29,596 nt of DNA from Gammaproteobacteria bacterium (GTDB lineage: Bacteria > Pseudomonadota > Gammaproteobacteria > Xanthomonadales > Xanthomonadaceae): the NCBI GenBank assembly GCA_026398715.1, contig JAPLSI010000107.1:1-29596 (forward strand). Direction: 5' to 3'. Positions 1 to 29,596 of the stretch are shown here, piece by piece. Numbering within the stretch: the stretch's first letter is position 1; the number at the start of each line of letters is the position of its first letter. The notes under the pieces are model-generated. The model had not been told where the DNA came from. It made no database searches and saw only the letters and a list, made by a program, of their open reading frames with translations. Both the position numbers and the translations under genes were made by a program.

Positions 1-2
1 TC

Positions 3-514: not shown

Positions 515-521
515 GCCCCCA

Positions 522-2315
<1,794 letters not shown>

Positions 2316-2326
2316 GACCCAATACG

Positions 2327-3112: not shown

Positions 3113-3140
3113 CAGGCAGGACCTGTCGGGTCCCCTGGCA

Positions 3141-3810: not shown

Positions 3811-3826
3811 GCCACCAAGGATGTCC

Positions 3827-5771: not shown

Positions 5772-5775
5772 CCCG

Positions 5776-8121: not shown

Positions 8122-8124
8122 GGC

Positions 8125-12694: not shown

Positions 12695-12695
12695 T

Positions 12696-13481: not shown

Positions 13482-13515
13482 TGTTGCTCCGTGTCGGGAA
13501 GGGGCCAGGAACGCG

Positions 13516-14823: not shown

Positions 14824-14838
14824 CGCCGTGGGTCCGGG

Positions 14839-15615: not shown

Positions 15616-15621
15616 CGGCGC

Positions 15622-15627
15622 AGGATA
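15622..15627 (-). promoter_or_regulatory. Candidate -10 element for the sulfotransferase gene
   Basis: Read on the minus strand the site is TATCCT, ending 6 nt before the ATG at 15615. A start of transcription about 7 nt downstream of the -10 would fall on the ATG itself. No convincing -35 box is seen at 16-19 nt. Tentative, from spacing only. Confidence 0.25.
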
Positions 15628-15688
15628 GCGTGCGCTGCGCGATGGGTGCTACTTTGGCGGCCGGCATTGGCGATGAACGCGGGCAGGC

Positions 15689-16699
15689 ATGGCTTCGAAA
15701 GGCAAGATACTCGTTTGCGGCGGTGCAGGTTACATCGGCTCGCACATGTGCCGGCAGTTGTCCGTTGCCGGATTCGAGCCGGTGGTATTCGACAACTTCT
15801 CGACCGGCAACCGTTGGGCCGTGAAATGGGGCGACCTCGTCGAGGGCGACCTGCTCGACCCGGTCGCACTGGCGCGGGTTTTTGCCGGCCAGCGGTTCGA
15901 CGCGGTGCTGCATTTCGCCGCCAAGGCGCTGGTGGGCGAGTCGATCGGCGATCCCGGTTTGTATTTTCGCAACAATGTGTCCGGCACCATCAACCTGCTG
16001 GCCGCGATGCAGGCGGCGGGCGTGGGGCGCCTGGTGTTCTCGTCCACCGCCGCGGTGTATGGCGAGCCGCAGCATGTGCCGATGCAGGAATCGCATCCCA
16101 CGGCGCCGATCAACCCTTATGGCTGGAGCAAGTTGCTGGCCGAACGCGTGATCGAAGAGTATTGCGCTGCCCACGGAATGCGTGCGATCGCGCTGCGCTA
16201 TTTCAACGTCGCCGGCGCCAGTCCGACGGGCGAGATTGGCGAGGTGCACGATCCCGAGACGCATCTGGTCCCCAACATCATTCGCGCCGCACTGGACCCG
16301 GGGCTTGGCCCCGTGCTGATCCACGGCGGCGACTTTCCGACGCCTGACGGTACCTGCATCCGCGACTACGTCCACGTCGAGGACCTGTGCGACGCCCATC
16401 TGCTGGCCCTGCGGCAGCTGGACCGCCAGGAAGGATTCCGTGTCTTCAACCTCGGCACCGGCGACGGTTATTCGGTCGCGCAGGTACTCGCGCAGTGCCG
16501 CGCCCGGCACGCAGGACGCCCCGAGTCCTCGCTCGGCCCACGTCGGCCGGGCGACCCGGCCCGGCTGGTGGCGAGCCATGCCGCCGCGACCGAAGTGCTG
16601 GGTTGGGAGCCGCGCTTCGGTTTGGCGGAAATCATCGACAGCGCGTCGGCGTGGCATTCGCGCGCCGGCCGCGGTGGCCATCCGGCAGGCGACGGCTAG
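15689..16699 (+). CDS. galE: UDP-glucose 4-epimerase family protein
   Basis: A 336-residue short-chain dehydrogenase-type epimerase that would interconvert UDP-Glc/UDP-Gal (or the GlcNAc/GalNAc pair). The NAD-binding motif GGAGYIGSH is at about residues 11-19. HFAAKALVGESI, FSSTAAVYGEP (catalytic Ser/Thr region), NPYGWSK (Tyr144, Lys148) and RYFNVAGASPTGEIGE follow, all in GalE order. The C-terminus contains GTGDGYSV. It lies on the plus strand within an island of mostly minus-strand genes and most likely supplies a nucleotide sugar to the neighbouring transferases. Its stop codon shares the palindrome CTAG with the stop of the convergent GT61 gene. Confidence 0.93.
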   Translation: MASKGKILVCGGAGYIGSHMCRQLSVAGFEPVVFDNFSTGNRWAVKWGDLVEGDLLDPVALARVFAGQRFDAVLHFAAKALVGESIGDPGLYFRNNVSGTINLLAAMQAAGVGRLVFSSTAAVYGEPQHVPMQESHPTAPINPYGWSKLLAERVIEEYCAAHGMRAIALRYFNVAGASPTGEIGEVHDPETHLVPNIIRAALDPGLGPVLIHGGDFPTPDGTCIRDYVHVEDLCDAHLLALRQLDRQEGFRVFNLGTGDGYSVAQVLAQCRARHAGRPESSLGPRRPGDPARLVASHAAATEVLGWEPRFGLAEIIDSASAWHSRAGRGGHPAGDG

Positions 16700-17721
16700 T
16701 CGTCGCAGGCCTGCAGGGCGAGATCGAGTTGCTGGCAGTCGACCAGGACGTCGCCGCCATGCGGGTAGGGAAAGACCGGCGTGTTGGTGGACGTGATCTG
16801 CGAATACCGGTGATGGAGCACGCGGTAGATTTCGCTGTACGTGGGGTTGAGGTACAGGGGAGAAAAGCACTCGATCACCCGTGACTTCGGCGCCATCAGC
16901 TGGCTGTGCACGAATTGCGAGCCGTGCAGCCCGGCCATCACGCGCATGCCTGCTGCCGCAGAAATCTGCTCGCGCACCGACAGTGCGCCCATGTCCACGC
17001 GCTGCAATCCATATTTTTCGAGCAATCGCGCGACTTCCTCTTCGTTGACCAGCTTCCGGCCAAGGCGTGTCTGCTGGCCCCGGTCGAGCCACAACCTTTC
17101 GCCCAGGTTCGAAGCGCCTGCTGCACCCAGCAGCAGGCTCCGCAAGCGATGCAGGACGCCGGGATAGTCGGAGACATTCAGGTAACTGACGGGCGTGGTG
17201 TACAGCGCGCTGCGAAAGCGGGTCGGCCGGCTGGTCTCCAGGATGCGGGCATCGGGCACCCCGATCAGTTCCAGCAAGGTGCGCGCGAAGGCGGGCAGTC
17301 CGGATATCACGTAGGCGCAGTGGATGCCTGCGTGCTCGAGCACGACCAGCTTCATCAACTCTTCGTGCCAATGGGTGAAGTTTCGTGAAAATACGTTGCC
17401 GAGGATGCAGACGTCGCCCGCGTAGTCGCTGTCGATGAACCCATCGAAGTGGTTGATGCCCTTTTCGAGCAGTCGCGCGCGGATGAACTCGGACGTGAAG
17501 TCGTAGCTGAGCGCTTCGATCGGCAGGTAGCGGCCCTTGGCTACCTGCAGCCCCTGGCCCGGATTGTGGGCGTTCGGCACGTACAGTACGTCGGCCACGC
17601 GAACGGCTTCCACCGGCAAGCGCTCCGACAGGCCGGCGATGGAGTGGATGGCTCCACCCTCGGCACGCACCATCCCGATGATGGAGGCGCTTGCCAGTTG
17701 TTCGACCTGCACGATGCCCAT
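16696..17721 (-). CDS. Glycosyltransferase family 61 (DUF563) protein, second copy
   Basis: A 341-residue protein with both GT61 blocks: NFTHWHEELMKLVVLE near residue 110 (the N-F-x-H-W element) and AGLHGSQFVHSQLMAP (His266), equivalent to the HGAGLTN motif. It is more canonical at the second motif than the GT61 gene at 13516 and not obviously a recent copy of it. The start at 17721 (MGIVQVEQL) has AAGGGA upstream; an upstream in-frame ATG at 17823 would run through the divergent promoter region and is less likely. The gene forms its own unit, convergent with galE and divergent from the acyltransferase gene. Sugar specificity unknown. Confidence 0.8.
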   Translation of the reverse strand: MGIVQVEQLASASIIGMVRAEGGAIHSIAGLSERLPVEAVRVADVLYVPNAHNPGQGLQVAKGRYLPIEALSYDFTSEFIRARLLEKGINHFDGFIDSDYAGDVCILGNVFSRNFTHWHEELMKLVVLEHAGIHCAYVISGLPAFARTLLELIGVPDARILETSRPTRFRSALYTTPVSYLNVSDYPGVLHRLRSLLLGAAGASNLGERLWLDRGQQTRLGRKLVNEEEVARLLEKYGLQRVDMGALSVREQISAAAGMRVMAGLHGSQFVHSQLMAPKSRVIECFSPLYLNPTYSEIYRVLHHRYSQITSTNTPVFPYPHGGDVLVDCQQLDLALQACDD

Positions 17722-17770
17722 TCGATTCCCTTCGCTGCCAACGCATGAAGTCTGGAGGGTGGTCGGTGAA

Positions 17771-17801
17771 TTGGCAATGCGATGACGGGGCGACGTATGC
17801 T
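17771..17801 (+). promoter_or_regulatory. Candidate promoter for the acyltransferase gene
   Basis: The 104-bp space between divergent genes contains TTGGCA (17771-17776) and TATGCT (17796-17801) with a 19-nt spacer, about 24 nt before the ATG at 17826. Both boxes are fair matches to sigma-70 elements but the spacing is long. Tentative. Confidence 0.3.
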
Positions 17802-17825
17802 TCTCGCCTGCCACGGCGTCCAACG

Positions 17826-18812
17826 ATGAGCCTCGACGTACAAATCATCTCCCTGTCCGACCCCGATCGCTGGCGCGCCGAACTGGCCGTTGACGGGCGC
17901 CCGTCCCAGGCCTGGGACTATCTCTCGGCGATCTCCCGGCCGGGCGCCGAACCTCGACTGGCGATCGTGCAGGCGCAAGGTGCGCGCATGGTGCTGCCCT
18001 TCATCGAACGCGACTGGCAGGGCAGCGTGGATATCGCCACGCCGCTTGGCTTGTCCGGAGCATCGATGCAACCAGCGTCGATCGCGCCGGTCGCGCTGTG
18101 GCGCGAGTACGCCATCAGCCGCGGCTGGGTCGCCGGTTACATCCAGCTGGCGGACGACCTGGACATCCGGGCGCCTGGCGAATTGGACCAGGTCGTTGCA
18201 GGCAACGAGATATTCCTGCTGGACCTGCGCGGCGCCGATGCCATGGCGCCCGCATCCGAAATCGTCCGGCGCAAGCTGCGTCGTGCCGTCAAGCACGGTG
18301 TCGCCTTGGCTCGCGATCCCGTAATGCTCGCCGATGCCCTCGTCCGCCTGTATCCGGACACGATGGCCCGCCTGGGCGCGAGCTCGGTCTATCGCCACGA
18401 TGAGGCCGGACTTCGCCAGTTCGCGAATCTGGAAGGGGCGGTGGTCGTCGGCGCGATAGTGGACGGCGCAGTGGAGTCCGTTTCGGTATTCCTGCGCGCC
18501 GGCCGCCGTGCCGAATACCTGTGCAACGCCTGCAGCCCGCAAGGTCGCGACCTGGCGGCGTGGCTGATCAGCGAGGCTGCGAAAATCCTGCAGGCGGATG
18601 GTGCCACCGAACTGAACCTGGGCGGCGGCGTCGCCACGGGCGACGGACTGCACCAGTTCAAGGCGCGCTTCAACGCAAGGCCGCGGCGCTTGCGGTCCCT
18701 GCGCCAGGTCTACGACAAGGCCCGATACCTCGAGTTGTGTGCCGCACGCGGGACAGGGCCGGACGGCGGCTGGTTTCCCGCCTATCGCGCGCCGGTTTCC
18801 CCTCAGGCCTGA
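17826..18812 (+). CDS. GNAT/FemAB-like acyltransferase
   Basis: A 328-residue soluble protein. The C-terminal half has the pattern of BioF2-like/FemAB GNAT proteins: AAWLISEAAKILQADGATELNLGGG, then GLHQFKARFNARPRRLRSL, where the G-L-x-x-F-K-x-x-F-x-x-x-P element is typical. The middle has FLLDLRG and RRKLRRAVKHGV, also seen in this group. Such proteins transfer acyl or aminoacyl groups; here an amino sugar made by the nearby aminotransferase is a plausible acceptor, which is inference. It is a single-gene plus-strand unit; its last 10 nt overlap the end of the convergent sulfotransferase gene. Confidence 0.7.
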   Translation: MSLDVQIISLSDPDRWRAELAVDGRPSQAWDYLSAISRPGAEPRLAIVQAQGARMVLPFIERDWQGSVDIATPLGLSGASMQPASIAPVALWREYAISRGWVAGYIQLADDLDIRAPGELDQVVAGNEIFLLDLRGADAMAPASEIVRRKLRRAVKHGVALARDPVMLADALVRLYPDTMARLGASSVYRHDEAGLRQFANLEGAVVVGAIVDGAVESVSVFLRAGRRAEYLCNACSPQGRDLAAWLISEAAKILQADGATELNLGGGVATGDGLHQFKARFNARPRRLRSLRQVYDKARYLELCAARGTGPDGGWFPAYRAPVSPQA

Positions 18813-19654
18813 AGATCCACTTCGAAGCCCAGCGCGCGCACCGCTTCGATATCCTTAGCGTCGAATACCGCGCAGTCCATCGATCGATAACGTCCGTGGC
18901 TGGGCTGCGGCTCGACCATGCCTGCCAGTGCTTCGGATTCCTGCCGGGGCAGGCCCAGGAATTGCTGCAGCCGCTCGACACCGTCCACCGGATTGGCGCA
19001 GAAGGCATCGTAGTCGAGCCAGAGGAATCTCTCGCCCATTGACGCGCCCAGGGCATGGGCGCGACGTTGCACCGCCAGCCAGTAGCGCAACGCGCGCACG
19101 GGCGTCGGCAGGTCGCCGGGAATCCCGAAAGCATCGGCCCAATAGGCGAGCTGGTTCTGGTTGCTGCTGAAAGCCATGTCGAGGCCGTGACGCACTACAT
19201 GCACATAGCGCAGTGCCGGAAAATGACGGGCAAGGAAGGGCAGCAGCACGTGCGTGTTGGGTTCCTTCCATCCCCAGGGCCGATTATCGGCTTGTGCTGT
19301 CGTGGCGGCGGACAGACGGGTGGCGCGCTCCGCCAGCCAGTCGCGTGGATGTTGTGGTCGATCATCCGCGGCAAGCTGCTCGATGCGGCCCTGTTCGTGC
19401 GGCGTCAACGGACGCGACGCTGTCATTGCTGCCACGAAGATGGCGAGGTCCTGCGCCAGTGCAGCGTCGTCCATCGACAAAACTTCCGGTCGCTTGAACA
19501 ACAGGGTCCACGCCAGGTTGTCCTGCGAGGAATTGACGTCGAAACCGATGTTCACGCCCAGCTGCCGGGTGATGGCGGCAATCAGGTTGGTGCCGCTGCC
19601 ACCGACGCCGCCGATGGCGACGTGCGGGTCGCGCGGGTGGCCGTGGTCCGTCAT
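18803..19654 (-). CDS. Sulfotransferase-family protein, second
   Basis: A 283-residue protein with GGVGGSGTNLI (residues 15-25) at the position of the 5'-phosphosulfate loop, PWGWKEPNTH at about 127-134 (the W-G-x-K-x-P element), and YVHVVRHGLDMAFSSN with Arg155 and Ser163/164 as the 3'-phosphate motif. This matches the Sulfotransfer_1/3-like group and differs in type from the HIPKTGGT protein at 14839. It could equally bind another nucleotide, since loop residues vary. The start overlaps the stop of the WbqC gene by 4 nt, so it is the fourth and last gene of a minus-strand operon. Confidence 0.75.
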   Translation of the reverse strand: MTDHGHPRDPHVAIGGVGGSGTNLIAAITRQLGVNIGFDVNSSQDNLAWTLLFKRPEVLSMDDAALAQDLAIFVAAMTASRPLTPHEQGRIEQLAADDRPQHPRDWLAERATRLSAATTAQADNRPWGWKEPNTHVLLPFLARHFPALRYVHVVRHGLDMAFSSNQNQLAYWADAFGIPGDLPTPVRALRYWLAVQRRAHALGASMGERFLWLDYDAFCANPVDGVERLQQFLGLPRQESEALAGMVEPQPSHGRYRSMDCAVFDAKDIEAVRALGFEVDLQA

Positions 19655-20352
19655 TCCGGCTCCCGACCGGGGTGCTGCAGCTCAGCGGCCATGGCGCCGC
19701 GCTGGCCCGCCATCAGGGCGGGCAACAGGTGCATGAAGGCGCCTTCATAAGGTGGCAGGAATTCGAGTTCGATGCCCTCGCGCGCGAACGATTCCGGATC
19801 GTACAGGTCCCTGCCGCCGGGCGAGTTGAGGTAATGCGTCGCGCCGCGTGCATGGGCGATCGCGAGGATCCTTTCCTGCGCACGCAGTGCCGGATCCATG
19901 CCGAGCGCCGAGCTACGCACGATCGGCGTGTGGATGTCCAGCAAGTCCAGCACGAGCCGAAGGCCCGACTCCAGGAAATCCATCACCGAATCCAGCGGCG
20001 CGTGCAGGTGCTCTCGAACGCGATCCGCATCCGGTCCACGCGTCGAGGCAATCCACGCCAGCGAGGACAGACTGCGATCAAACCGGGCGCGCGCATCGGC
20101 GGCGAAGGCAAGGTCGCGAATCAGGACATCCTGCGGTTGCCGCGCCAGCGGCAGGCCCAGCCAGTCGGATTCGCGTCCCAGGCTGGCAACCTGCGTGCGG
20201 TGCACGCGGCCCCGGCGGGGCATTTGAACGCAGTCGTACAGGACGAACTCGTCGACGTCGGAAAACAGTCGGAAGTAGCCCAGGTAGGGGAAGAAATAGG
20301 GCTGCATCACGGCAATGCGCTTGCCCGGTTCGATCCGACGCGGCTGGCTCAT
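19651..20352 (-). CDS. WbqC family protein
   Basis: A 233-residue protein. The N-terminal block IAVMQPYFFPYLGYFRLF (residues 13-30) followed by VDEFVLYDCVQMPRRG is the signature of the WbqC family, found in O-antigen and flagellin-glycan clusters. A biochemical role is not firmly established; members are thought to act in dTDP- or UDP-amino-sugar modification. YLNSPGGRDLYDPESF near residue 185 is also conserved in the family. It is translationally coupled on both sides (ATGA overlaps with the GT2 gene and the sulfotransferase gene), which ties it to the aminotransferase fusion two genes upstream. Confidence 0.85.
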   Translation of the reverse strand: MSQPRRIEPGKRIAVMQPYFFPYLGYFRLFSDVDEFVLYDCVQMPRRGRVHRTQVASLGRESDWLGLPLARQPQDVLIRDLAFAADARARFDRSLSSLAWIASTRGPDADRVREHLHAPLDSVMDFLESGLRLVLDLLDIHTPIVRSSALGMDPALRAQERILAIAHARGATHYLNSPGGRDLYDPESFAREGIELEFLPPYEGAFMHLLPALMAGQRGAMAAELQHPGREPE

Positions 20353-21230
20353 TGGTCGAGACCGCCCTGGCCGTGCAACATCTCGCGTGCGCTGCGGATG
20401 GTGCCGTTGTCCCGATAGCGTCGCATGTCCTCGGCCGACAGCCGCTGGCGATCGAATTCGTCGTCGATCCCGCCCTGCACGGCAATGTCCCGCCAACGAC
20501 GCCACTGCCGGGCCATTCCCGCGCCGAAGTAGTCGTCGTGCATCGCCATCAGCTTCTGGATGTTTTCCACTTTTCGTCGGAACCGCCCGCGGCTGGTGAA
20601 GGGCAGGTGGGCGATGACCACGTCGGTGGGCACGCGGGTCGCCAACGGCGCGCCGGCGATGCCCTGGGCTCCATGCATGCCGTTGTCCAGCGAGCCGATG
20701 CGCTCGGGCCTGGCCAGGATCTTGGGCATGGGCACCCGCACGATCCACGGCGCGGCCTGTTGCTCGAGCGGGACGTTGAAAAAATCGGGAATGGGCTTGA
20801 CGAACATCAGCAACTGATCGTGGTTGGCCGGCGTCACCGGCCAGGACACGCAGGCGCCGGCATCGGCCAGTACGACGTTGTAACGATCCACGCAGAGCAG
20901 GTCGGCGTCGGTACCGGCCAGGCAGTCGCGCAGGTTGCCGGTGGCGGGCAACCACAGTTCGTCGGCGTCCTGGAACAGCATCCAGTCCGCGCGCGCTGAT
21001 TTTGCCAGCGCGAGGTTCTTGTGCAGCCAGGAATCGCCAGGCTCGCTGTCGCTCATTGTCTCGAACCAGAAATCCTCGCCGCGGCAGGACTCGAGGAATT
21101 CGGCGGTGCCATCGGTGGATTCATGGTCGACGGCGATGATGTGGTCCACGCCGATCGAACGCAGATGCGCGATCACGCCGGGGATGAGTTCGATCTCATC
21201 CTTGACACTGAGGTGCGCGGCGATCCGCAT
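20349..21230 (-). CDS. Glycosyltransferase family 2 protein
   Basis: A 293-residue cytoplasmic transferase with a GT-A fold. The N-terminus (HLSVKDEIELIPGVIAHLRS) resembles the start of GT2 proteins of the Glyco_tranf_2_4 type. VDHIIAVDHESTDGT is the nucleotide-sugar region, and FQDADELW holds the metal-binding DAD at residues 88-90. FTSRGRFRRKVENI near residue 225 is typical of this subgroup. It begins 7 nt after the aminotransferase fusion gene and overlaps WbqC by 4 nt. Donor sugar unknown; an amino sugar from the same operon is a reasonable guess. Confidence 0.85.
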   Translation of the reverse strand: MRIAAHLSVKDEIELIPGVIAHLRSIGVDHIIAVDHESTDGTAEFLESCRGEDFWFETMSDSEPGDSWLHKNLALAKSARADWMLFQDADELWLPATGNLRDCLAGTDADLLCVDRYNVVLADAGACVSWPVTPANHDQLLMFVKPIPDFFNVPLEQQAAPWIVRVPMPKILARPERIGSLDNGMHGAQGIAGAPLATRVPTDVVIAHLPFTSRGRFRRKVENIQKLMAMHDDYFGAGMARQWRRWRDIAVQGGIDDEFDRQRLSAEDMRRYRDNGTIRSAREMLHGQGGLDQ

Positions 21231-21237
21231 CAGCGGT

Positions 21238-23040
21238 TCACTCCGCAACCAGGCCGTCGTGCAGCGCACGCACGACCCGTGCCACGGTCTGCTCGTCAAG
21301 GTCCGGCGCCATGGGCAGGCCGAGCAGGCAGGGCGTGATCGCGTCGGTGACGGGAAGCGCGTCGCGCAAGCTGTCGGCGTAGTAGGACTGGTGATGCAGT
21401 CCCTGGCCGTACCAGTGCCGGTACTCCACGCCATTGCGATCCAGCGATTGCTGCACCCGGTGCGCCTGCACGCCGTCGTGGCAGCGCAGCAGGACATAGC
21501 TCGAGCAGACGTCCGGCGCCGTGAACAACATCGGCTCCAGCGGCGTACCGGCCACATGGCGATGGTAGCAGGCAACCACGCGCGCAAACGCGGCCTGTTT
21601 CTGCCGCCAGTCGTCGAGTTCGGCCAGCCCGATGGCGGCGTGGTATTCGCTCATCTTTCCGTTGGTGCTGGCAGTACGGCTGTCGCGACTGAAATGGAAA
21701 CCGTAGTTGAGCGCCTGGCCGATGCGCGTCGCCAACTCGATGTCGCTGCAGACCACGCAACCGCCTTCTGCGGTTGCGAGACTTTTGGTTGCGTGCAGGC
21801 TGATCATCACCGGGATCGGGCCCAGATGCGCTTCCGGCGCCAACTCGAGTGCTTCAAAACTCGCGGCTCCATCGATCACTACGGGTATGCCGGTTCGTTC
21901 GCGGAACGCCAGCCAGGGCGCTTGTTCGACCGGCCTGCCGAATGCTGCCACCGGAATCACCACGCCGACCTGGTCGAGGCGGGGATGCGTCGCCATCTTG
22001 TCTGCGTCCAGCAGCCAGCTGTCGGCTTCCACGTCCACCAGGCAGGGCCTGAAGCCGCATTCCTGCGCAGCCACGGCGGTCGCGACGAACGTCAGCGCCG
22101 GCATCAGGGCCAGCGGGCGTTCCGGGCGCGCGCGCCCGGCCGTCGCCAGGATGGATCCGACCAGCCCCGCGGTGCCCGTGTTGGCCGACACGACGCTGCC
22201 TTCCGCTTGCTGGAAGTGGCGCGACAGCCGCGCTTCGAATTCCAGTACCAGCGGCCCGAAATTCGAGTAGATCCGCGATGCATCGATTCGCCGCAGGTAG
22301 GGAAGCAGTTTCTCGGCCCTGGGCAGCAGGGGACGCAACACCCGCACCGGTCCATTGGCATCGGCGATGCGGTCGGGCAGGACGTCGGATGACACTGCCA
22401 CGTCCTCGCGGAAGGCGTAGCAGGTGTACTCGTAGAGGCCGTAATCGGCGCGCATCCGCACGCGCCGCCCTGCCAGTGGGTGCAGGAGCGCCGCCATGTC
22501 GTCCATGGGCGCATGGAACAGGTCCTCGCGTTCCCAGTCCACGACCTTCGACATCACGTTGAATGCCAGGCCGCGACGAACCCGGGGCCAAACCGACCTG
22601 ATCGTGGACTCGACGAAGGACTGCATCTGCGCGTGGCTGAGGTCGTGCTTTACCGTGAACAAGCCGTTGGCAACCAGGTAGTCACAGTCGACCAGCCCCA
22701 GGTCCGCCCCATCGGCGTTGACATCGAGTTCGTGGAACGCAGCGCCTGGGAATTTCCCGCGCGCGTGTTCCAACGCCAATCGCGACCGGTCGATGCCCAC
22801 GTAGGTGATGCCGGTCATCCCGCGTTCGCGAATGCGCTCGAGCAGTCCACCGGTGCCGCAGCCCAGGTCGCACAGCACCACGTTCCCGGCCGGCCTTGCC
22901 TCGAGCAAGTCGAGCATCACGTCGTAGCGGGTGGCCCGGCCGGCGGCATCGGGCCACATCGCGCCTTGCGGCGTGTCGCCGAACTCACCCAGGGCCTGGT
23001 CGTAACGGGCGAGAATCGAGTCCTCGGGGCGGCTGTTCAT
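21238..23040 (-). CDS. Methyltransferase / DegT-type sugar aminotransferase fusion
   Basis: A 600-residue two-domain protein. Residues about 1-235 are a class I SAM methyltransferase (motif I CDLGCGTGG, Asp58 to Gly65; YVGIDRSRLALEHARGKFP; MSKVVDWEREDLFHA). Residues about 240-600 are a complete PLP-dependent DegT/DnrJ/EryC1/StrS aminotransferase: LPYLRRIDASRIYSNFGPLV (from 246), PVVIDGAASFEAL (Asp binding the pyridine nitrogen), SLHATKSLATAEGG with the PLP lysine at Lys419, and NGKMSEYHAAIGLAELD. It probably aminates a keto-sugar nucleotide; the methyltransferase half may act on the same product. The ATG at 23040 is preferred over an in-frame TTG at 23058. First gene of a four-gene operon. 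Confidence 0.88.
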   Translation of the reverse strand: MNSRPEDSILARYDQALGEFGDTPQGAMWPDAAGRATRYDVMLDLLEARPAGNVVLCDLGCGTGGLLERIRERGMTGITYVGIDRSRLALEHARGKFPGAAFHELDVNADGADLGLVDCDYLVANGLFTVKHDLSHAQMQSFVESTIRSVWPRVRRGLAFNVMSKVVDWEREDLFHAPMDDMAALLHPLAGRRVRMRADYGLYEYTCYAFREDVAVSSDVLPDRIADANGPVRVLRPLLPRAEKLLPYLRRIDASRIYSNFGPLVLEFEARLSRHFQQAEGSVVSANTGTAGLVGSILATAGRARPERPLALMPALTFVATAVAAQECGFRPCLVDVEADSWLLDADKMATHPRLDQVGVVIPVAAFGRPVEQAPWLAFRERTGIPVVIDGAASFEALELAPEAHLGPIPVMISLHATKSLATAEGGCVVCSDIELATRIGQALNYGFHFSRDSRTASTNGKMSEYHAAIGLAELDDWRQKQAAFARVVACYHRHVAGTPLEPMLFTAPDVCSSYVLLRCHDGVQAHRVQQSLDRNGVEYRHWYGQGLHHQSYYADSLRDALPVTDAITPCLLGLPMAPDLDEQTVARVVRALHDGLVAE

Positions 23041-23073
23041 TCTCGACTGCGATGCCAAAACCGGAATCGGGAC

Positions 23074-23079
23074 ATGATA
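23074..23079 (-). promoter_or_regulatory. Candidate -10 element for the aminotransferase operon
   Basis: In the 80-bp divergent spacer with uvrC, the minus strand reads TATCAT about 33 nt before the ATG at 23040. The -35 region is not convincing. Tentative. Confidence 0.25.
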
Positions 23080-23108
23080 GGTGGCTTCGGCAGGTGGCGC
23101 GAGTGCGC

Positions 23109-23114
23109 GATAAT
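23109..23114 (+). promoter_or_regulatory. Candidate -10 element for uvrC (possibly leaderless)
   Basis: GATAAT ends 6 nt before the uvrC ATG at 23121, so transcription would be expected to start at or next to the A of the start codon. The bases between are GCGGGG, which could instead be read as a weak ribosome site too close to the ATG. No good -35 box at the usual spacing. Confidence 0.3.
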
Positions 23115-23120
23115 GCGGGG

Positions 23121-24830
23121 ATGACGCAATTACCTGAACCGCCAGCCTTCGACGGAAAGGAGTTCGTGCGCGAACTCACCACGGCGCCGGGCGTGTACCG
23201 GATGATTGCCGGCGACGGCAGCGTGCTTTACGTGGGCAAGGCGGCGTCCCTGAAGAAACGCGTGGCCAACTACTTCCGCGCCGACCAGCCATCGCGGCGG
23301 ATCGCATTGATGGTTGCGCAGATCGCCCGCGTGGAAATCACCGTCACCCGCACCGCCAGTGAAGCCCTGATCCTGGAAAACCAGCTGATCAAGACGCTGC
23401 GTCCGCGCTACAACGTGCTGCTGCGCGACGACAAAAGCTACCCCTACATCCTGCTGACCGACGAAACCTGGCCGCGCATCGCCTACCACCGGGGGCCTCG
23501 CGCGGTCCCCGGGAGATATTTTGGCCCCTATCCGGGGTCCGGGGCGGTGCGCGAGACCATGGACCTGATGCAGAAGATCTTCAAGTTGCGCACGTGCGAG
23601 GACAGCGTGTTCCGCAACCGAAGCCGGCCCTGCCTCCAGCACCAGATCGGACGCTGCAGTGCGCCTTGCGTGGGACTGGTGGCCACCCGCGACTACGATG
23701 CCAGCGTCGGCCGGGCCGCCTTGTTCCTGGAAGGGCGCAGCAGCGAGCTGGTGGATGAACTGACCAAGTCAATGGACGCCGCCAGCGCGCGCCTCGAGTA
23801 CGAGTCGGCCGCGCAATTGCGCGACGCGATTGCCGGAATCCGCAAGGTGCAGGCGCGGCAGTACGTCGAGGGTGAACAGGTCGAGATGGATATCCTCGCC
23901 TGCGCCTTCACCCCATCTCTGGCCTGCGTGTTGCTGCTGTCATTCCGCGACGGCATGAACCAGGGCACGCGACCCTTCTTCCCGAAACTAAACGGGGCGG
24001 AATCGGCGGAGGAGGTGCTCGCGGCCTTCGTCGGCCAGTACTACCTGGAAAAACGACCGCCGCGGGAGATCGTGCTCAGCCACGACATCCCGGACATCGA
24101 ACTGTTCGAGAAGGTTTTTTCGGAACAGGCCGGCCGGCGTGTGGAAATCAAGCCGAGCGTGCGCGGGGAACGCGCGCGCTATCTCGAACTGGCGCGCAGC
24201 AATGCCGAGCATGCGCTGCAGGCTCAGGCCAGCAGCAGCGCCACCCAGAACCGCAGGTTGGTTTCCTTGCAGGAACTCCTGGGCCTGCCGGCGCCGCCGC
24301 AGCGCATCGAGTGCTTCGACATCAGCCACACCATGGGCGAGGCCACGGTGGCGTCCTGCGTGGTGTTCGACGGGCAGGGCCCGGTCCGCGCGCAATACCG
24401 GCGGTTCAACATCACCGGGGTCACGCCCGGCGACGACTACGCTGCCATGCGCCAGGCGCTCGAGCGACGCTTCCGCCGCGCCATCGAGGAGGTCTTTCCG
24501 GATGGCAGGGAAATTCGTCCGGGCGTCGAGTCCCCCGGACTGCAGTTGATCCAGCAGGTGCGTGACGAGGCGCATCGGTTTGCCATCACCGGCCACCGCG
24601 GCCGCCGCCAGAAGACGCGCGAGACCAGTCGCCTGGAAGACATTGCCGGCATCGGTCCGCGCCGGCGCGCGAGCCTGCTCAAGCATTTTGGCGGCCTGGC
24701 CGGCCTGAAAGAGGCGGGCGCCGAGGAGATTGCGCGCGTCGAAGGGGTCAGTGCTGCCCTGGCAGCCCGCATCTATGCTTCACTACACGGGCTGGAAAGC
24801 CCTGCCAGCCTGGCCCCGGAGAGCCCGTGA
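23121..24830 (+). CDS. uvrC: Excinuclease ABC subunit C, lacking a block of the nuclease domain
   Basis: UvrC makes both incisions around bulky DNA lesions after UvrA/UvrB recognition. The frame is open for 569 residues. Present are the N-terminal GIY-YIG nuclease (APGVYRM, Tyr26; VLYVGKAASLKKRV), the UVR UvrB-binding helices (about 208-240), ECFDISH (Asp400, E. coli Asp399), TPGDDY (Asp438), RDEAHRFAITGH (His485, E. coli His538), and C-terminal HhH motifs (IAGIGPRRR). Missing is the stretch normally between RRAIEE and the PDGREI...SPGL region. That stretch carries LLIDGGxGQ with the third catalytic Asp (E. coli Asp466) and VGVAKG. From Asp438 to the His there are 47 residues here, 100 in E. 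coli. The family is about 600-615 residues, so the shortfall is a clean in-frame loss near 24486-24497. Deletion artefact or real inactivation of 5' incision. Confidence 0.93.
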   Translation: MTQLPEPPAFDGKEFVRELTTAPGVYRMIAGDGSVLYVGKAASLKKRVANYFRADQPSRRIALMVAQIARVEITVTRTASEALILENQLIKTLRPRYNVLLRDDKSYPYILLTDETWPRIAYHRGPRAVPGRYFGPYPGSGAVRETMDLMQKIFKLRTCEDSVFRNRSRPCLQHQIGRCSAPCVGLVATRDYDASVGRAALFLEGRSSELVDELTKSMDAASARLEYESAAQLRDAIAGIRKVQARQYVEGEQVEMDILACAFTPSLACVLLLSFRDGMNQGTRPFFPKLNGAESAEEVLAAFVGQYYLEKRPPREIVLSHDIPDIELFEKVFSEQAGRRVEIKPSVRGERARYLELARSNAEHALQAQASSSATQNRRLVSLQELLGLPAPPQRIECFDISHTMGEATVASCVVFDGQGPVRAQYRRFNITGVTPGDDYAAMRQALERRFRRAIEEVFPDGREIRPGVESPGLQLIQQVRDEAHRFAITGHRGRRQKTRETSRLEDIAGIGPRRRASLLKHFGGLAGLKEAGAEEIARVEGVSAALAARIYASLHGLESPASLAPESP

Positions 24831-25387
24831 CCCTGACGATTCCCACGATGCTGACACTCTTTCGCATCGTGCTCGTTCCGGTGCTGGTGTTCTGCTTCTA
24901 CTGGGCCAATCCGTGGAGCAACGTGCTTGCCTGCGCGGTGTTCGTGCTTGGCGCGCTCACCGACATCCTGGATGGCTGGATCGCCCGGCGCTACCAGATG
25001 TATTCGGCCTTCGGCGCCTTCCTCGACCCCGTTGCGGACAAGCTTGCCGTGACAGTCGCGCTGTTCCTGATCGTTCAGTGGCACCACACGGTGCCCATCG
25101 CGCTGTTGTCGGCGGTGATCGTCGGTCGAGAAATCACCATCTCGGCCCTGCGCGAATGGATGGCGCAGATGGGCGACCATGGCTTGGTGAAGGTCGCCGG
25201 CCTGGGCAAGCTCAAGACCATCGTGCAGATGACAGCAATCAGCTTGTTGATCTTTCGCGAGCCGTTGCTGGGGCTGCCGATATTCCTCATTGGCGAGTGG
25301 TTGCTGGGTTTTGCCGCGGCGTTGACCCTGTGGTCGGGCTGGGATTACCTTCGCGCCGCGTGGCCTTCCATGCGCAAACGCGGATGA
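24827..25387 (+). CDS. pgsA: CDP-diacylglycerol-glycerol-3-phosphate 3-phosphatidyltransferase
   Basis: A 186-residue polytopic inner-membrane enzyme that makes phosphatidylglycerol phosphate, the first committed step to phosphatidylglycerol and cardiolipin. The CDP-alcohol phosphotransferase motif is complete: Asp46, Asp49-Gly50, Ala53-Arg54, Gly63, Asp67 and Asp71. IPTMLTLFRIVLVP at the N-terminus and VGREITISALREW in the middle are PgsA-specific. The start is GTG in a GTGA overlap with the uvrC stop, so it is coupled to uvrC, the arrangement common in gammaproteobacteria. Length and topology are normal. Confidence 0.95.
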   Translation: MTLTIPTMLTLFRIVLVPVLVFCFYWANPWSNVLACAVFVLGALTDILDGWIARRYQMYSAFGAFLDPVADKLAVTVALFLIVQWHHTVPIALLSAVIVGREITISALREWMAQMGDHGLVKVAGLGKLKTIVQMTAISLLIFREPLLGLPIFLIGEWLLGFAAALTLWSGWDYLRAAWPSMRKRG

Positions 25388-25411
25388 ATGAAGGCAAATG
25401 GTGATCAGGTG

Positions 25412-25441
25412 TTGACAGCAAGGTGCCAAATCGCCAAAAAT
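25412..25441 (+). promoter_or_regulatory. Promoter for tRNA-Gly
   Basis: A perfect -35 TTGACA (25412-25417), an 18-nt spacer and AAAAAT (25436-25441), followed by the GC-rich discriminator ACGCG that is common at growth-controlled stable RNA promoters. The expected start of transcription is a few bases before the tRNA at 25453. Confidence 0.6.
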
Positions 25442-25452
25442 ACGCGTCTTCT

Positions 25453-25528
<76 letters not shown>

Positions 25529-25536
25529 GAAGCCCG

Positions 25537-25565
25537 AAACCCCGCGTTTGCCGGGGTTTTGTTTT
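25537..25565 (+). terminator. Rho-independent terminator after tRNA-Gly
   Basis: An 8-bp stem AAACCCCG / CGGGGTTT around a short CGTTTGC loop, followed by TTTTGTTTT. It lies between tRNA-Gly and tRNA-Cys, so the tRNA-Gly transcript probably ends here. Confidence 0.85.
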
Positions 25566-25573
25566 ATCCGGGG

Positions 25574-25601
25574 TTGCCAAGCGCGCAAGTCGCGCTAAGC
25601 T
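25574..25601 (+). promoter_or_regulatory. Candidate promoter for tRNA-Cys and tRNA-Leu
   Basis: TTGCCA (25574-25579), 16-nt spacer, TAAGCT (25596-25601), about 18 nt before tRNA-Cys. It lies just downstream of the tRNA-Gly terminator, where a new promoter would be needed. The -10 keeps the three most conserved positions. Confidence 0.45.
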
Positions 25602-25619
25602 TTCCCCACGTTAGTCACC

Positions 25620-25693
25620 GGCCAGGTGGCAGAGTGGTCATGCAGCGGCCTGCAAAGCCGCGTACGCCGGTTCGATCCCGACCCTGGCCTCCA
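25620..25693 (+). tRNA. tRNA-Cys (anticodon GCA)
   Basis: 74 nt with encoded CCA. Acceptor GGCCAGG pairs with CCTGGCC; anticodon arm GCGGC-CTGCAAA-GCCGC gives GCA; the T arm contains GGTTCGATCC. Followed by 37 nt and then tRNA-Leu with no terminator between, so the two are probably co-transcribed. Confidence 0.97.
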
Positions 25694-25730
25694 TCGCGCA
25701 AACGCGGTGATTGCGGCACCATGCGTCCAA

Positions 25731-25817
25731 GCCCGGGTGGCGAAACTGGTATACGCATGGGACTTAAAATCCCCCGGCCGCAAGGCCATGCGGGTTCGAC
25801 CCCCGCCCCGGGCACCA
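25731..25817 (+). tRNA. tRNA-Leu (anticodon TAA)
   Basis: 87 nt with encoded CCA and a long variable arm (about CGGCCGCAAGGCCATG), as expected for a class II tRNA. Acceptor GCCCGGG pairs with CCCGGGC; the anticodon loop CTTAAAA gives TAA; the T arm is CGGGTTCGACCCCCG. The first anticodon-stem pair is a T-C mismatch by this folding. No Rho-independent terminator is seen after it. Confidence 0.95.
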
Positions 25818-25887
25818 GTTCACAGTTTCCGATCTTGAACGGCGCGCCATGGGCAGCTGCTACTCCAAACGCTAGTGCATTCCTACC

Positions 25888-25916
25888 GGTTCGAACCTGA
25901 GCCCAGTTGCTAGCAT
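25888..25916 (+). promoter_or_regulatory. Palindrome and candidate extended -10 before the secreted-protein gene
   Basis: In the 142-bp space after tRNA-Leu there is a perfect 10-bp palindrome GGTTCGAACC (25888-25897) and TGCTAGCAT, which reads as an extended -10 (TAGCAT, 25911-25916), 44 nt before the ATG at 25960. The palindrome lies where a -35 box would be. It also resembles a tRNA T-loop, so it may be an old tRNA remnant rather than an operator. Confidence 0.3.
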
Positions 25917-25959
25917 CAGATTGCCGCCGGGGGGCGGACATCCAAGGGAGTAGCTTCAA

Positions 25960-27156
25960 ATGATCAAGGTCCTTTCCAGGGTCAGTTTGCTGGCGGCCGC
26001 CAGCCTGGCCTTTGCCGGCGCAGCGTCGGCGCAGTCGCCGAATGGCTTCGCATCCATCCTTCACATTCCGGTCGTGGTCAACACGGCGTCATTCCAGAGC
26101 ACGATCTTCGTGCATAACCCGAATGGCACAGCCACCAACGTCCAATTCAACTACTACGGGGCCACGGGCACCGCGAGCGCCGGTTTCCTGGATTGCGGCG
26201 TGCAGTCGATTCCGGCCGGTACCACGGCGGAATTCGACTTCGGCACCGTTTGTCCGCTGGCCGCCGGCTCCAATTTCGGCAACATGCGCATCTGGGAAAC
26301 CGATGCGGCCGTGCGTCCGATTGCGGCGTATACCCGCGTCCAGGCACCCAGCGGCAATGGCTTCTCGATCGAAGGCTTTCCGATCGGCAACTTCGCCAAC
26401 GATGTCGGCGCCAGCGTGACGCTGGGACTGCGCCGCCAGGCTGCGGCGCCGACCTACCAGTCCAACTGCTTCGTTTCGTCCATCGGCGAGGCGGTGACGG
26501 TGGACATGGCCCTGTTCGATGGCAGCAACGTGCAGCTTGGCACCACGCAGGTGATCGCCGTCGGCGCCAACGACACGACCCGCCTGCTGGATGTGTTCAC
26601 GGCGGCTGGCGCGCTTCCGGGTGATTACTCCAACGTCCGCGCTGAGTTCCGGCAGAACATTGCCACGGTCGGCAATCCGTCCTTCTCGGCATTCTGCACC
26701 GTGCAGAACAATACCTCGTCCGACGCCGACTTCCGCATTGCCAAGACGATTTCGCCCGATGACGATGCCCTCCTTTACTCCACCAATCAACCGAAGGATG
26801 GCTTGAACAACCTGTTGTCGATTCCCGCTGGCGGCAAGGCGGTCTTCGGGTATTTCCTGAAGCATCCTGACTTCATCTCCTGCCGGATCGTCGGTGGCAA
26901 CGCGAACAACACTGAAATCCAGCTGCGCACCCCGACCGGTACGATCGTGGCCGGCGGTGACGATATCAACCAGTTCGGCGAATACTTCACCGGTGAAAAG
27001 AGCACCGTGAACAACGGCACCAACGGCATGTGGACGCTTGAAGTGGGCTCGCGCGACGGCACCGGCATCGACGCCACCAAGTACAACGTGCAGTGCGCGA
27101 CGGGCAACGGCAGCAACCGCGGCCTGCTGATCGGCAACCTGCCGGATGATTTCTGA
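25960..27156 (+). CDS. Secreted protein of unknown function, six cysteines
   Basis: A 398-residue protein not recognised as a named family. A clear Sec signal peptide (MIKVLSRVSLLAAASLAFAG, cleavage after ASA at residue 24) directs it out of the cytoplasm. The mature part is rich in Asn, Gly, Thr and Ala with alternating hydrophobic residues, suggesting beta-sandwich folds. One segment (STIFVHNPNGTATNVQFNYY) resembles the repeated 'interesting-pattern' seen in secreted beta proteins. Six cysteines (DCG, VCP, NCF, FCT, SCR, QCA) could form three disulfides. The C-terminal part (IQLRTPTGTIV ... MWTLEVGS) faintly resembles a P-domain jelly roll. Strong ribosome site AAGGGAG 9 nt before the ATG; a strong terminator follows, so it is probably monocistronic and well expressed. 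Confidence 0.8.
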   Translation: MIKVLSRVSLLAAASLAFAGAASAQSPNGFASILHIPVVVNTASFQSTIFVHNPNGTATNVQFNYYGATGTASAGFLDCGVQSIPAGTTAEFDFGTVCPLAAGSNFGNMRIWETDAAVRPIAAYTRVQAPSGNGFSIEGFPIGNFANDVGASVTLGLRRQAAAPTYQSNCFVSSIGEAVTVDMALFDGSNVQLGTTQVIAVGANDTTRLLDVFTAAGALPGDYSNVRAEFRQNIATVGNPSFSAFCTVQNNTSSDADFRIAKTISPDDDALLYSTNQPKDGLNNLLSIPAGGKAVFGYFLKHPDFISCRIVGGNANNTEIQLRTPTGTIVAGGDDINQFGEYFTGEKSTVNNGTNGMWTLEVGSRDGTGIDATKYNVQCATGNGSNRGLLIGNLPDDF

Positions 27157-27188
27157 TCGGCGGTTAATGCGATAAGCTCGAGTTCCAG

Positions 27189-27228
27189 AGAAGCCGCGCA
27201 GGTATTCCTGCGCGGCTTCTTGGTTTTT
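27189..27228 (+). terminator. Strong Rho-independent terminator
   Basis: A perfect 14-bp stem, AGAAGCCGCGCAGG / CCTGCGCGGCTTCT, with a TATT tetraloop and the tail TGGTTTTT. It ends the secreted-protein transcript, 33 nt after its stop codon. The arms are nearly symmetrical in base content, but A-rich flanking is absent on the left, so it acts mainly in the plus direction. Confidence 0.93.
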
Positions 27229-27249
27229 CGGCCCTTTGGAACTTGCGGC

Positions 27250-27750
27250 ATGATGAAAGTTAAGCTCTCGACGGTGGCGCTGCCGGTCTTGGCGCTGCTG
27301 CTGGTGGCCTGGTGGTTCATTCAGGGTCGTGGGTCGGCTCCGGAAGAGGTTGCCAGTCCGTCGGCCACGGTGCCCGTCGTGTCGTCGCCGGTTCCGCCGG
27401 CGGCAGTTGCCCGACCCGTTGGTCAGGTGCCGGGCTACACCGCGCCCCCCATCGAGTCCTTCACTCCTGCGCAGGTCGCCGAATTGCGTCGCGCGGAAGT
27501 TGAGCGAAGCGCGAACTCGGAGCCGCCGAAGACGTTTGTCGGCATCGATGGAAAGACGCATGCCCTGGAGTACAACAGCTCGGCGAAATCCGACGCCAGG
27601 CAGGAGGCGCGCGACATCAGGCGGGCATTGCTGATGCGTCAGCTGATGGCGGACCCGCAGCGTTTCGCGCGCGACCACCAGTTGAGCCTGAAGGAAGTGC
27701 AGTGGATCGTGGACGGGACCAGCGACTTCCCGGACCGGCTGCTGGACTGA
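27250..27750 (+). CDS. Single-pass membrane protein of unknown function
   Basis: A 166-residue protein that I do not recognise. One N-terminal hydrophobic segment (STVALPVLALLLVAWWF, about residues 7-23) is followed by a Pro/Val/Ser-rich linker (about 30-70) and a charged C-terminal region with a probable helical part (EARDIRRALLMRQLMADPQRFARDHQLSLKEVQWIV). This suggests a periplasm-facing or lipoprotein-like tethered domain. The ATG at 27250 is chosen (GGAA 9 nt upstream); it is followed directly by a second ATG. It begins only 22 nt after a strong terminator and ends 4 nt before the glutamate-synthase-domain gene, so the pair is probably co-transcribed. Confidence 0.75.
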   Translation: MMKVKLSTVALPVLALLLVAWWFIQGRGSAPEEVASPSATVPVVSSPVPPAAVARPVGQVPGYTAPPIESFTPAQVAELRRAEVERSANSEPPKTFVGIDGKTHALEYNSSAKSDARQEARDIRRALLMRQLMADPQRFARDHQLSLKEVQWIVDGTSDFPDRLLD

Positions 27751-27754
27751 CACC

Positions 27755-29386
27755 ATGCTGCCGCCGCGCTATTGGATTTTCGCCTTTTGCATCCTCGCGA
27801 TGCTGGCCTCGCTGGCGGCGTTGCCGCTGGGCGCCGGTTGGGCATGGCCCGCCGCCATCTTCACCATCCTCAGCCTGGTAGGCGTCGCCGACTTGCGGCA
27901 GGAGGCGCAGACACTGCGTCGCAACTACCCGGTGATCGCGCATCTTCGATACTTCCTCGAAAGCCTGGGTCCGGAGATCCGCCAGTACTTCATCGAATCG
28001 GACAACGACGAGCGGCCGTTTTCCAGGCAGCAGCGCTCTGTCGTCTACCAGCGCGCGAAGAACGCCCTGGACAAACGGCCGTTCGGAACGCAACTCGATG
28101 TCTATGCCGACAAGTACGAATGGATCAATCACTCGATCATGCCGGCCACGGTGCCGTCGCATGATTTCCGGGTGGAGATCGGCGCGGGCACCGCGCAGCC
28201 GTACTCCGCCAGCGTGTTCAACATCTCCGCGATGAGCTTCGGTGCGCTGTCGGCCAACGCGATCCGCGCGTTGAACGAGGGCGCGCGCCAGGGAAACTTC
28301 TACCAGGACACCGGGGAGGGCTCGATATCGCAGTACCACCGCGAAAATGGCGGCGACCTGGTCTGGGAAATCGGCTCGGGATATTTCGGCTGCCGGGATG
28401 CCGAGGGCCATTTCGACGAGGCGTCCTTCGTCGCAAACGCCAGTTCGCCGCAGGTAAGGATGATCGAGGTCAAGCTGTCGCAGGGCGCCAAGCCCGGGCA
28501 TGGTGGCGTGCTTCCCGGTGTCAAGGTTTCCCCGGAAATCGCGGCTGCGCGCGGCGTGCCCGTTGGCGTGGACTGCGTCTCCCCTGCGCGGCATTCGGCG
28601 TTTTCCACGCCCATCGAATTGCTGCAGTTCGTCGAGCGCTTGCGCAAGCTTTCGGGCGGCAAGCCCACGGGCTTCAAGCTCGCCATCGGGCATCCTTGGG
28701 AATGGTTTGCGATTGCCAAGGCGATGCGGGAGTCAGGCATCCTGCCCGACTTCATCGTCGTGGATGGGGGCGAGGGCGGCACCGGCGCCGCACCACTGGA
28801 ATTCACTGACCATGTCGGCGTCCCGTTGAGGGAAGCACTGCTGCTCGTGCACAACACTCTGGTCGGCTTGTCGCTTCGCCCGCATATCCGGATCGGGGCT
28901 GCAGGCAAGATCATCACGGCGTTCGACATCGCGCGGACGATGGCGATGGGCGCCGACTGTTGCAACGCCGCCCGCGGCTACATGTTCGCCCTGGGATGCA
29001 TCCAGTCGATGAGTTGCCACACCGATCGCTGCCCGACCGGCATCGCTACCCAGAACCAGTCGCGACAGAAGGCACTGGTGCCCGAAGACAAGTCGACCCG
29101 CGTGCTTCGCTTCCACGAAAACACCCTGATGGCGCTCAGGGAATTGATTGCCGCGGCTGGCCTGGAACATCCGGGTCAACTCGGGCCCGAGCACATCATC
29201 CGCCGAATCTCCTCGACCAAGGTTGCCTCGCTTTCGATGCTGACTTCCTTCATCGAGCCGGGCGCATTGCTCGACGGCAAGCTGCCCGACCACCCCGTCT
29301 TCGAGGCCTTCTGGCCCGAGGCGCGCAGCGACTCGTTCGCTGCGCCCGCCCGTGCAATAGCGATGCGCAGCACAAAGCTCAGATAG
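27755..29386 (+). CDS. FMN-binding glutamate synthase family protein, membrane-anchored
   Basis: A 543-residue protein made of two N-terminal transmembrane segments (about residues 8-27 and 31-48) and the central FMN/[3Fe-4S] domain of glutamate synthase without the glutamine amidotransferase part. Visible are SAMSFGALSANAIRALNEGA, GEGSISQYH, GVKVSPEIAAARGVPVGVDC, FIVVDGGEGGTGAAP (FMN phosphate region), and the cluster motif CIQSMSCHTDRCPTG (Cys415, 421 and 426). The family is annotated as glutamate synthase, but lacking the amidotransferase it may use ammonia or do another reaction; the true substrate is unknown. It follows the single-pass protein by 4 nt. No clear terminator is seen after it. 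Confidence 0.9.
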   Translation: MLPPRYWIFAFCILAMLASLAALPLGAGWAWPAAIFTILSLVGVADLRQEAQTLRRNYPVIAHLRYFLESLGPEIRQYFIESDNDERPFSRQQRSVVYQRAKNALDKRPFGTQLDVYADKYEWINHSIMPATVPSHDFRVEIGAGTAQPYSASVFNISAMSFGALSANAIRALNEGARQGNFYQDTGEGSISQYHRENGGDLVWEIGSGYFGCRDAEGHFDEASFVANASSPQVRMIEVKLSQGAKPGHGGVLPGVKVSPEIAAARGVPVGVDCVSPARHSAFSTPIELLQFVERLRKLSGGKPTGFKLAIGHPWEWFAIAKAMRESGILPDFIVVDGGEGGTGAAPLEFTDHVGVPLREALLLVHNTLVGLSLRPHIRIGAAGKIITAFDIARTMAMGADCCNAARGYMFALGCIQSMSCHTDRCPTGIATQNQSRQKALVPEDKSTRVLRFHENTLMALRELIAAAGLEHPGQLGPEHIIRRISSTKVASLSMLTSFIEPGALLDGKLPDHPVFEAFWPEARSDSFAAPARAIAMRSTKLR

Positions 29387-29489
29387 CGGTCGCGCGTTTT
29401 GTGACGTGCCGCCATTCCCGGCATGACCTCCCCCGGGGCTTTGGGAGTAGGCTGGGCGGGACTGAAACCCGAAAGCGAGCTCTGAGCCC

Positions 29490-29596
29490 TTGGTCATCAA
29501 GGACCCCTTCCTGGCGAGGACGCAAGACGGGCTTTCGCCCCAGCAACCGCTGTGGGATGCACTGCCGGACGGCTTGCTGGTCATCGACGGCGACGG
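29490..29596 (+). CDS. N-terminus of a probable PAS-domain signalling protein (partial)
   Basis: The window ends in an open frame of 35 complete codons. From TTG at 29490 it reads MVIKDPFLARTQDGLSPQQP and later PDGLLVIDGDG, the opening strand of a PAS domain as found in sensor kinases and diguanylate cyclases. The frame is closed upstream at 29463 and no in-frame ATG or GTG precedes the PAS-like part, so TTG is the only usual start seen. The ribosome site is weak. The 103 nt before it (29387-29489) hold only weak small hairpins and no clear promoter. The call depends on the short PAS motif, so it is tentative. Confidence 0.5.
   Translation, partial: MVIKDPFLARTQDGLSPQQPLWDALPDGLLVIDGD

What the first reader, a model, noticed from the sequence alone, without database searches (positions are those of the whole stretch)
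24423..24578. UvrC lacks the IDGG block of its nuclease domain, including one catalytic aspartate
Seen: the frame runs without a stop for 569 codons, yet it goes directly from RRAIEE to VFPDGREI...SPGLQLIQQ (junction near 24491/24492). From Asp438 (TPGDDY) to the catalytic His (His485, RDEAH) there are 47 residues; in E. coli UvrC the same span is 100 (438 to 538). Known: 5' incision needs Asp399, Asp438, Asp466 and His538; Asp466 lies in the LLIDGGKGQ motif, which is absent here together with the VGVAKG segment. About 45-50 codons are missing cleanly and in frame. Inference: either an assembly/sequencing deletion, or a real UvrC that can no longer make the 5' cut, possibly leaving only the GIY-YIG 3' nick.
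Basis: partly seen in the sequence, partly recalled or inferred. Interest (0 to 1): 0.85.

Follow-up and report, generated by a model that had tools for sequence, protein, structure and literature searches.

The report
Repair gene uvrC missing 49 codons
A DNA-repair gene of an Arenimonas-like bacterium lacks 49 codons that hold one of its cutting residues; the close relatives checked have them, so this looks like an isolated very recent mutation or an assembly error, not a new kind of enzyme.

Summary
uvrC (23121-24827 plus stop, 569 aa) lacks exactly 147 bp (49 codons) at 24490/24491. The nearest genome found (G014) is collinear there and has the 147 bp. Of 26 genus loci tested at DNA level, 24 resolved: 23 carry 147 extra bp, one 153. 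The loss removes strand-helix-strand of the RNase H fold and the IDGG aspartate (E. coli Asp466), 16 columns invariant in 33 relatives. The protein should not make the 5' cut. It is no shared short form: 161 of 161 fetched database proteins have ID(G/V)G; no block loss was seen among 213 matching genomes of the family (listing capped, 5 cut off at contig ends). The retained 569 residues show no decay: none private against 121 relatives, 9 versus 8 changes since G014, dN/dS 0.027. So the deletion is very recent or an artefact; no genome or reads are held, so I cannot separate these. Junction homology is 0-2 bp. None of 27 genus genomes shows Cho above its cut-off or a second UvrC (completeness not told). 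A working 3'-nick-only UvrC is not excluded but nothing supports it.

The parts
23121..24830 (+). uvrC, 569 codons plus stop, with an internal 147-bp in-frame deletion
   Evidence: Open frame; TIGR00194 535.7 bits, cut-off 285.45
24490..24491 (+). Deletion junction: 147 bp present in G014 between the aligned bases are absent here (placement ambiguous by 0-2 bases)
24270..24489 (+). Retained first part of the RNase H domain: strands 1-3 and helix A, with the aspartates of DISH (window D400) and GDDY (D438)
   Evidence: PF08459 matched only at profile positions 1-80 of 159 in its best stretch; alignment A1; model
24492..24620 (+). Retained last part of the RNase H domain: VFPDG...RDEAH, with the catalytic His (window H485)
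   Evidence: Alignment A1; PDB chain 2nrt matches in two pieces, 378-453 and 456-551
23187..23414 (+). GIY-YIG 3' endonuclease domain, intact
   Evidence: PF01541 residues 23-98, 39.2 bits, cut-off 22.6
23745..23846 (+). UVR motif (UvrB contact), intact
   Evidence: PF02151 residues 209-242
24630..24785 (+). (HhH)2 DNA-binding domain, intact
   Evidence: PF14520 residues 504-555
24827..25387 (+). pgsA, whose GTG start overlaps the uvrC stop (GTGA); same overlap in G014

Best explanation
An ordinary uvrC of an Arenimonas-like bacterium has suffered a single, very recent 147-bp in-frame deletion with 0-2 bp of homology at its ends (illegitimate recombination). Shown: the deletion takes out strand 4, helix B and strand 5 of the RNase H-like fold with the IDGG aspartate, while the GIY-YIG, UVR and HhH parts and the frame into pgsA are kept. 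Inferred: the protein can still meet UvrB and may still nick 3' of a lesion, but cannot make the 5' cut, so the allele is null (or worse, leaving nicks) for nucleotide excision repair. Inferred: an in-frame rather than out-of-frame loss would be favoured because pgsA start and uvrC stop overlap and the two are probably translated in a coupled way. It is a mutant allele, not an established short UvrC.
For: Exact 147 bp loss against a collinear genome; no other indel above 4 bases in the collinear 19.1 kb, so base accuracy there is good; block present in the relatives examined; retained residues without decay: 0 private residues against 121 relatives, 9 window-branch versus 8 G014-branch changes; dN/dS 0.027 over 554 codons, like lolD 0.027, exbD 0.030 and msbA 0.036. 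If selection had gone, at most about 2% of the window branch can have passed since (427 neutral changes expected on the whole branch, 95% limit of excess 7.7). Model of the short protein matches the solved RNase H domain 2nrr at TM 0.60, rmsd 3.7, the full-length relative at 0.91, rmsd 1.8. No repeat of 3 bp or more at the junction in any of 24 relatives, which speaks against a simple repeat collapse in assembly.
Against: Only one sequence shows it, and no reads or genome are held. The pristine rest of the gene is just what an artefact would leave. In-frame length has a one-in-three chance anyway. Model confidence for the whole short protein is low (pTM 0.41).
Confidence: 0.5

Rival explanations
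1. Assembly or sequencing artefact: the organism has an ordinary full-length uvrC and 147 bp were lost by a misjoin, a chimeric read or a consensus error.
For: Single occurrence; block retained in relatives; the rest of the protein is under full constraint with no private residue. Draft genomes do break inside this gene: G022 has an N run there and 5 of 28 re-examined family genomes end within uvrC.
Against: Junction is clean, in frame, with 0-2 bp homology, so a k-mer repeat collapse does not explain it; no other large indel in the collinear 19.1 kb; the open frames there are intact.
Confidence: 0.42
2. A maintained short UvrC: the 5' nuclease is dispensable and the protein serves as a 3' nickase or as a non-catalytic UvrC.
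For: The retained 569 residues look fully constrained. In Helicobacter pylori a UvrC with both catalytic sites mutated kept its role in short recombination imports (PMC9426483, passages seen), so a non-nuclease role for UvrC exists.
Against: The constraint was measured over divergence from G014, most of which must predate the loss. No relative shares the form. The same H. pylori paper reports that inactivating the catalytic residues gave a UV defect like the knockout. No Cho or second UvrC was found in 27 genus genomes to share the work.
Confidence: 0.05
3. Early pseudogene decay of uvrC as in reduced or symbiotic genomes.
For: uvrC is degraded by varied deletions in clade I symbionts of vesicomyid clams (PMC5310779, passages seen).
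Against: No frameshift, stop or substitution excess in the window gene; the neighbours are intact and 68% GC coding sequence (G014 block GC 0.68) gives no hint of a reduced genome.
Confidence: 0.03

Closest known systems
UvrC of Arenimonas-type relatives (P0001; G014 contig 26)
   Same: 94.6% (P0001) and 96.1% (G014) identical over the 569 shared residues; same start region, same pgsA neighbour in G014
   Different: They carry the 49-residue block (P0001 462-510) with IDGG and VGVAKG
T. maritima / B. stearothermophilus UvrC C-terminal half (PDB 2nrt, 2nrr, 3c65)
   Same: Same RNase H-like domain; DISH, DDY and RDE(T/V)H segments align
   Different: The window has no counterpart of the solved strand carrying (I/V)DGG, the helix after it and the next strand
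Helicobacter pylori UvrC with catalytic-site mutations (PMC9426483, passages)
   Same: A UvrC without a working 5' nuclease
   Different: Laboratory point mutants; there the GIY-YIG site was mutated too in the tested multiple mutant
Cho (excinuclease Cho)
   Same: A UvrC-like protein that makes only the 3' cut (recalled)
   Different: Cho is a short N-terminal homologue; the window protein scores 56.2 against a cut-off of 367 and keeps UVR, most of the RNase H region and HhH
Degraded uvrC of vesicomyid clam symbionts (PMC5310779, passages)
   Same: Natural loss of parts of uvrC by deletion
   Different: Those frames are collapsed with stops; this one is a single clean in-frame loss

Membership tests
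UvrC (TIGR00194) | Score above the curated cut-off | tested here: met
   535.7 bits, cut-off 285.45; but NF001824 (PRK00558) 432.3 is below its 451
UvrC (TIGR00194) | GIY-YIG domain, UVR motif and HhH domain | tested here: met
   PF01541, PF02151, PF14520 all above cut-off
UvrC (TIGR00194) | Complete RNase H-like 5' nuclease domain with the aspartates of DISH, DDY and IDGG and the His of RDEAH (residues Asp399, Asp438, Asp466, His538 in E. coli, from a cited title seen) | tested here: not met
   D400, D438 and H485 present, the IDGG aspartate and the 49-residue block absent; PF08459 best stretch covers 1-80 of 159
UvrC (TIGR00194) | Dual incision with UvrA and UvrB | not testable with these tools
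   Needs an incision assay
Cho (NF007833) | Score above the curated cut-off | tested here: not met
   56.2 bits, cut-off 367
A natural short-UvrC family | More than one independent member with the same loss | tested here: not met
   None among 161 fetched proteins, 24 resolved genus loci, or the 213 matching family genomes as far as listed

The most novel reading that the evidence does not exclude
A natural UvrC that has dropped the strand-helix-strand unit carrying the IDGG aspartate and works as a 3'-nick-only or structural UvrC, with another nuclease or polymerase path finishing excision, kept by selection together with the coupled pgsA frame.
Probability: 0.05. Interest if true: 0.7.

Novelty: new member of a known kind. 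Interest (0 to 1): 0.2.

Why it matters
If real it is a natural loss-of-5'-incision allele that leaves the 3' nuclease, a separation-of-function mutant usually made in the laboratory, and its carrier should be UV-sensitive since no Cho or second UvrC was found in the genus genomes searched. If it is an artefact it is a reminder that a clean, in-frame, domain-sized gap in one assembly is not evidence of a new enzyme form.

Tried and rejected
Shared short form: rejected. Junction-focused database search (residues 436-486) gave 4219 hits, 120 listed; the top one, P0121, ranks first because it holds two copies of the RNase H region, each with IDGG, and no listed protein runs across the junction without the block. 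Block moved elsewhere in the window: no. Plasmid copy: no match in the plasmid collection. Hairpin at the deletion ends: the G014 stretch folds no better than shuffles (z -0.26). Apparent second deletion in G022 (L112): an N run, excluded. Apparent two-piece UvrCs in family genomes: 23 of 28 have the block whole (second pieces start at residue 438-463 of P0001, mostly because of an insertion before it, or a frame or contig break) and 5 end at contig edges. Pattern test over 107 loci: 101 fit; of the 6 that did not, L012 and L029 do have IDGG, L092 has the block with His changed to Pro, L112 has Ns, and L062 and L069 were not resolved by pattern (their match span is 58 codons longer than the query stretch, which implies the block). 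L107 and L111 were not matched in the DNA test but fit the pattern. The sdhB row used a wrong frame and is dropped. Literature; a search for uvrC with Arenimonas found no paper; I did not search for reports of this allele in any other way.

Full report
What is there. The window is chromosomal DNA of a Lysobacteraceae bacterium close to Arenimonas: named nearest UvrC hits are Arenimonas, and the best of 27 genomes of the genus of L002 (Arenimonas sp. GDDSR-1) is G014, with 95% and 93% protein identity in two pieces. No whole genome is held for the window. uvrC runs 23121-24827 plus stop and reads for 569 codons. It is collinear with contig 26 of G014 at 86-88% DNA identity over window 1-12673, 23146-24490 and 24491-29596, and between the last two G014 has exactly 147 bp more.

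How unusual it is. The other gaps in those three alignments are eight single bases and one of 4 bases (three short gappy alignments within the non-collinear 19.7-23.0 kb part were not counted). At DNA level 26 genus loci were tested; 24 resolved, 23 of them with 147 extra bp and one (L109) with 153; L107 and L111 did not resolve there but fit the motif chain; G022 has a run of N and was left out. All 161 database proteins fetched (the best 120 listed of each, out of 8000 scored) carry ID(G/V)G. The junction-directed search found no protein continuous across the junction among the 120 listed.

What is lost. Counted in P0001, residues 462-510 are missing, with 16 columns invariant among 33 relatives: P465, D466, I470, D471, G472, G473, G475, Q476, A480, G496, A498, K499, G500, R503, G506, E508. 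In the AlphaFold model of P0001 this is the strand 467-471, helix 474-486 and strand 493-498 and most of a short strand 509-511. The model of the window protein keeps strands 396-403, 409-417, 427-431, the helix 439-450 and the long helix 472-501, with a poorly predicted link between them (mean pLDDT 54 and 74 for residues 451-460 and 461-470). Against the solved RNase H domain 2nrr the window model gives TM 0.60 and rmsd 3.7, the full-length control 0.91 and 1.8; matches at E up to 0.001 fall from 135 to 17. Overall model confidence is modest (pTM 0.41 and 0.47). The structure paper of the C-terminal half is not held. The inference that the protein cannot cut 5' is strong but untested.

Is the rest of the gene decaying? 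No. None of the 569 residues is private against 121 relatives, whereas the first 20 database relatives have 0-8 private residues each; since the split from G014 the window branch has 9 and the G014 branch 8 amino acid changes by the majority of five outgroups. dN/dS against G014 is 0.027 over 554 aligned codons, within the range of neighbours such as lolD 0.027, exbD 0.030 and msbA 0.036 (sdhB was read in a wrong frame and is dropped). About 427 amino-acid-changing substitutions would be expected on the window branch without selection; the 95% limit on the excess is 7.7, so relaxation could cover about 2% of the branch at most (a rough bound that takes half of dS 0.667 for the branch). The loss is therefore very recent, or not real, or the remaining protein is still under selection; the first two are by far the simpler.

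How it may have arisen. The junction has 0 bp of homology with G014 and 4 other relatives and 2 bp (GG) with 19, of 24 compared; the G014 stretch does not fold better than shuffles. That fits illegitimate recombination, and does not fit a repeat collapse in assembly; a chimeric read, misjoin or consensus error remains possible. The GTG of pgsA overlaps the uvrC stop in the window and in G014, so an out-of-frame loss could hurt pgsA expression, a possible reason for an in-frame survivor (inference; in-frame also has a chance of one in three).

Backup. In 27 genus genomes the window protein found only the two pieces of one uvrC each and the Cho model rang only on that gene, 0 of 27 above its cut-off. 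Genome completeness is not told, and the window's own genome could not be searched.

Known comparisons. In H. pylori, passages of PMC9426483 report that catalytic-site mutants in UvrC are as UV-sensitive as the knockout, yet a strain mutated in both nuclease sites and the DNA-binding domain keeps the unchanged import-length distribution. Passages of PMC5310779 report uvrC degraded by deletions in clam symbionts. So both a non-nuclease role of UvrC and natural uvrC loss are on record; nothing seen here lifts the window allele above an isolated deletion.

Verdict. Real very recent deletion that kills 5' incision 0.5; artefact 0.42; maintained short enzyme 0.05; early pseudogene decay 0.03. Interest is low unless reads confirm it and more carriers appear.

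Noticed in passing
12674-23120: Not collinear with G014: a set of glycan-type genes (methyltransferase, two glycosyltransferase 61, epimerase, sulfotransferase, WbqC-like, glycosyltransferase 2, DegT aminotransferase) sits between kdsB and uvrC.
   Followed up: partly
21238-23058, - strand: 606-aa open frame with an N-terminal methyltransferase domain and a C-terminal DegT/DnrJ/EryC1 aminotransferase domain; G014 has two stretches similar to its first part.
   Followed up: no
24827-24830: pgsA GTG start overlaps the uvrC TGA stop; same in G014, and stop and start look closely set in other genus loci (frames not checked there).
   Followed up: partly
25453-25817: tRNA-Gly, tRNA-Cys and tRNA-Leu genes follow pgsA.
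   Followed up: no
14839-15615, - strand: 258-aa open frame with no Pfam family at E 0.001.
   Followed up: no
L092 (G018 contig 161), uvrC: The catalytic His codon of RDEAH reads CCC (Pro) in this genome, a single-base difference from its relatives; error or a second inactive allele.
   Followed up: no
L112 (G022 contig 110), uvrC: A run of N replaces the middle of uvrC, which mimics an internal deletion in protein searches.
   Followed up: yes
L029 and several family genomes (e.g. L123): A long insertion lies just before the (V/I)LPD-LLIDGG strand of UvrC in Lysobacter-type genomes, splitting matches there.
   Followed up: partly
P0121 (466 aa, metagenome contig of 1650 bases): UvrC C-terminal fragment with two RNase H regions in tandem, each with GDDYA, IDGG and DEAHRFA.
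   Followed up: partly
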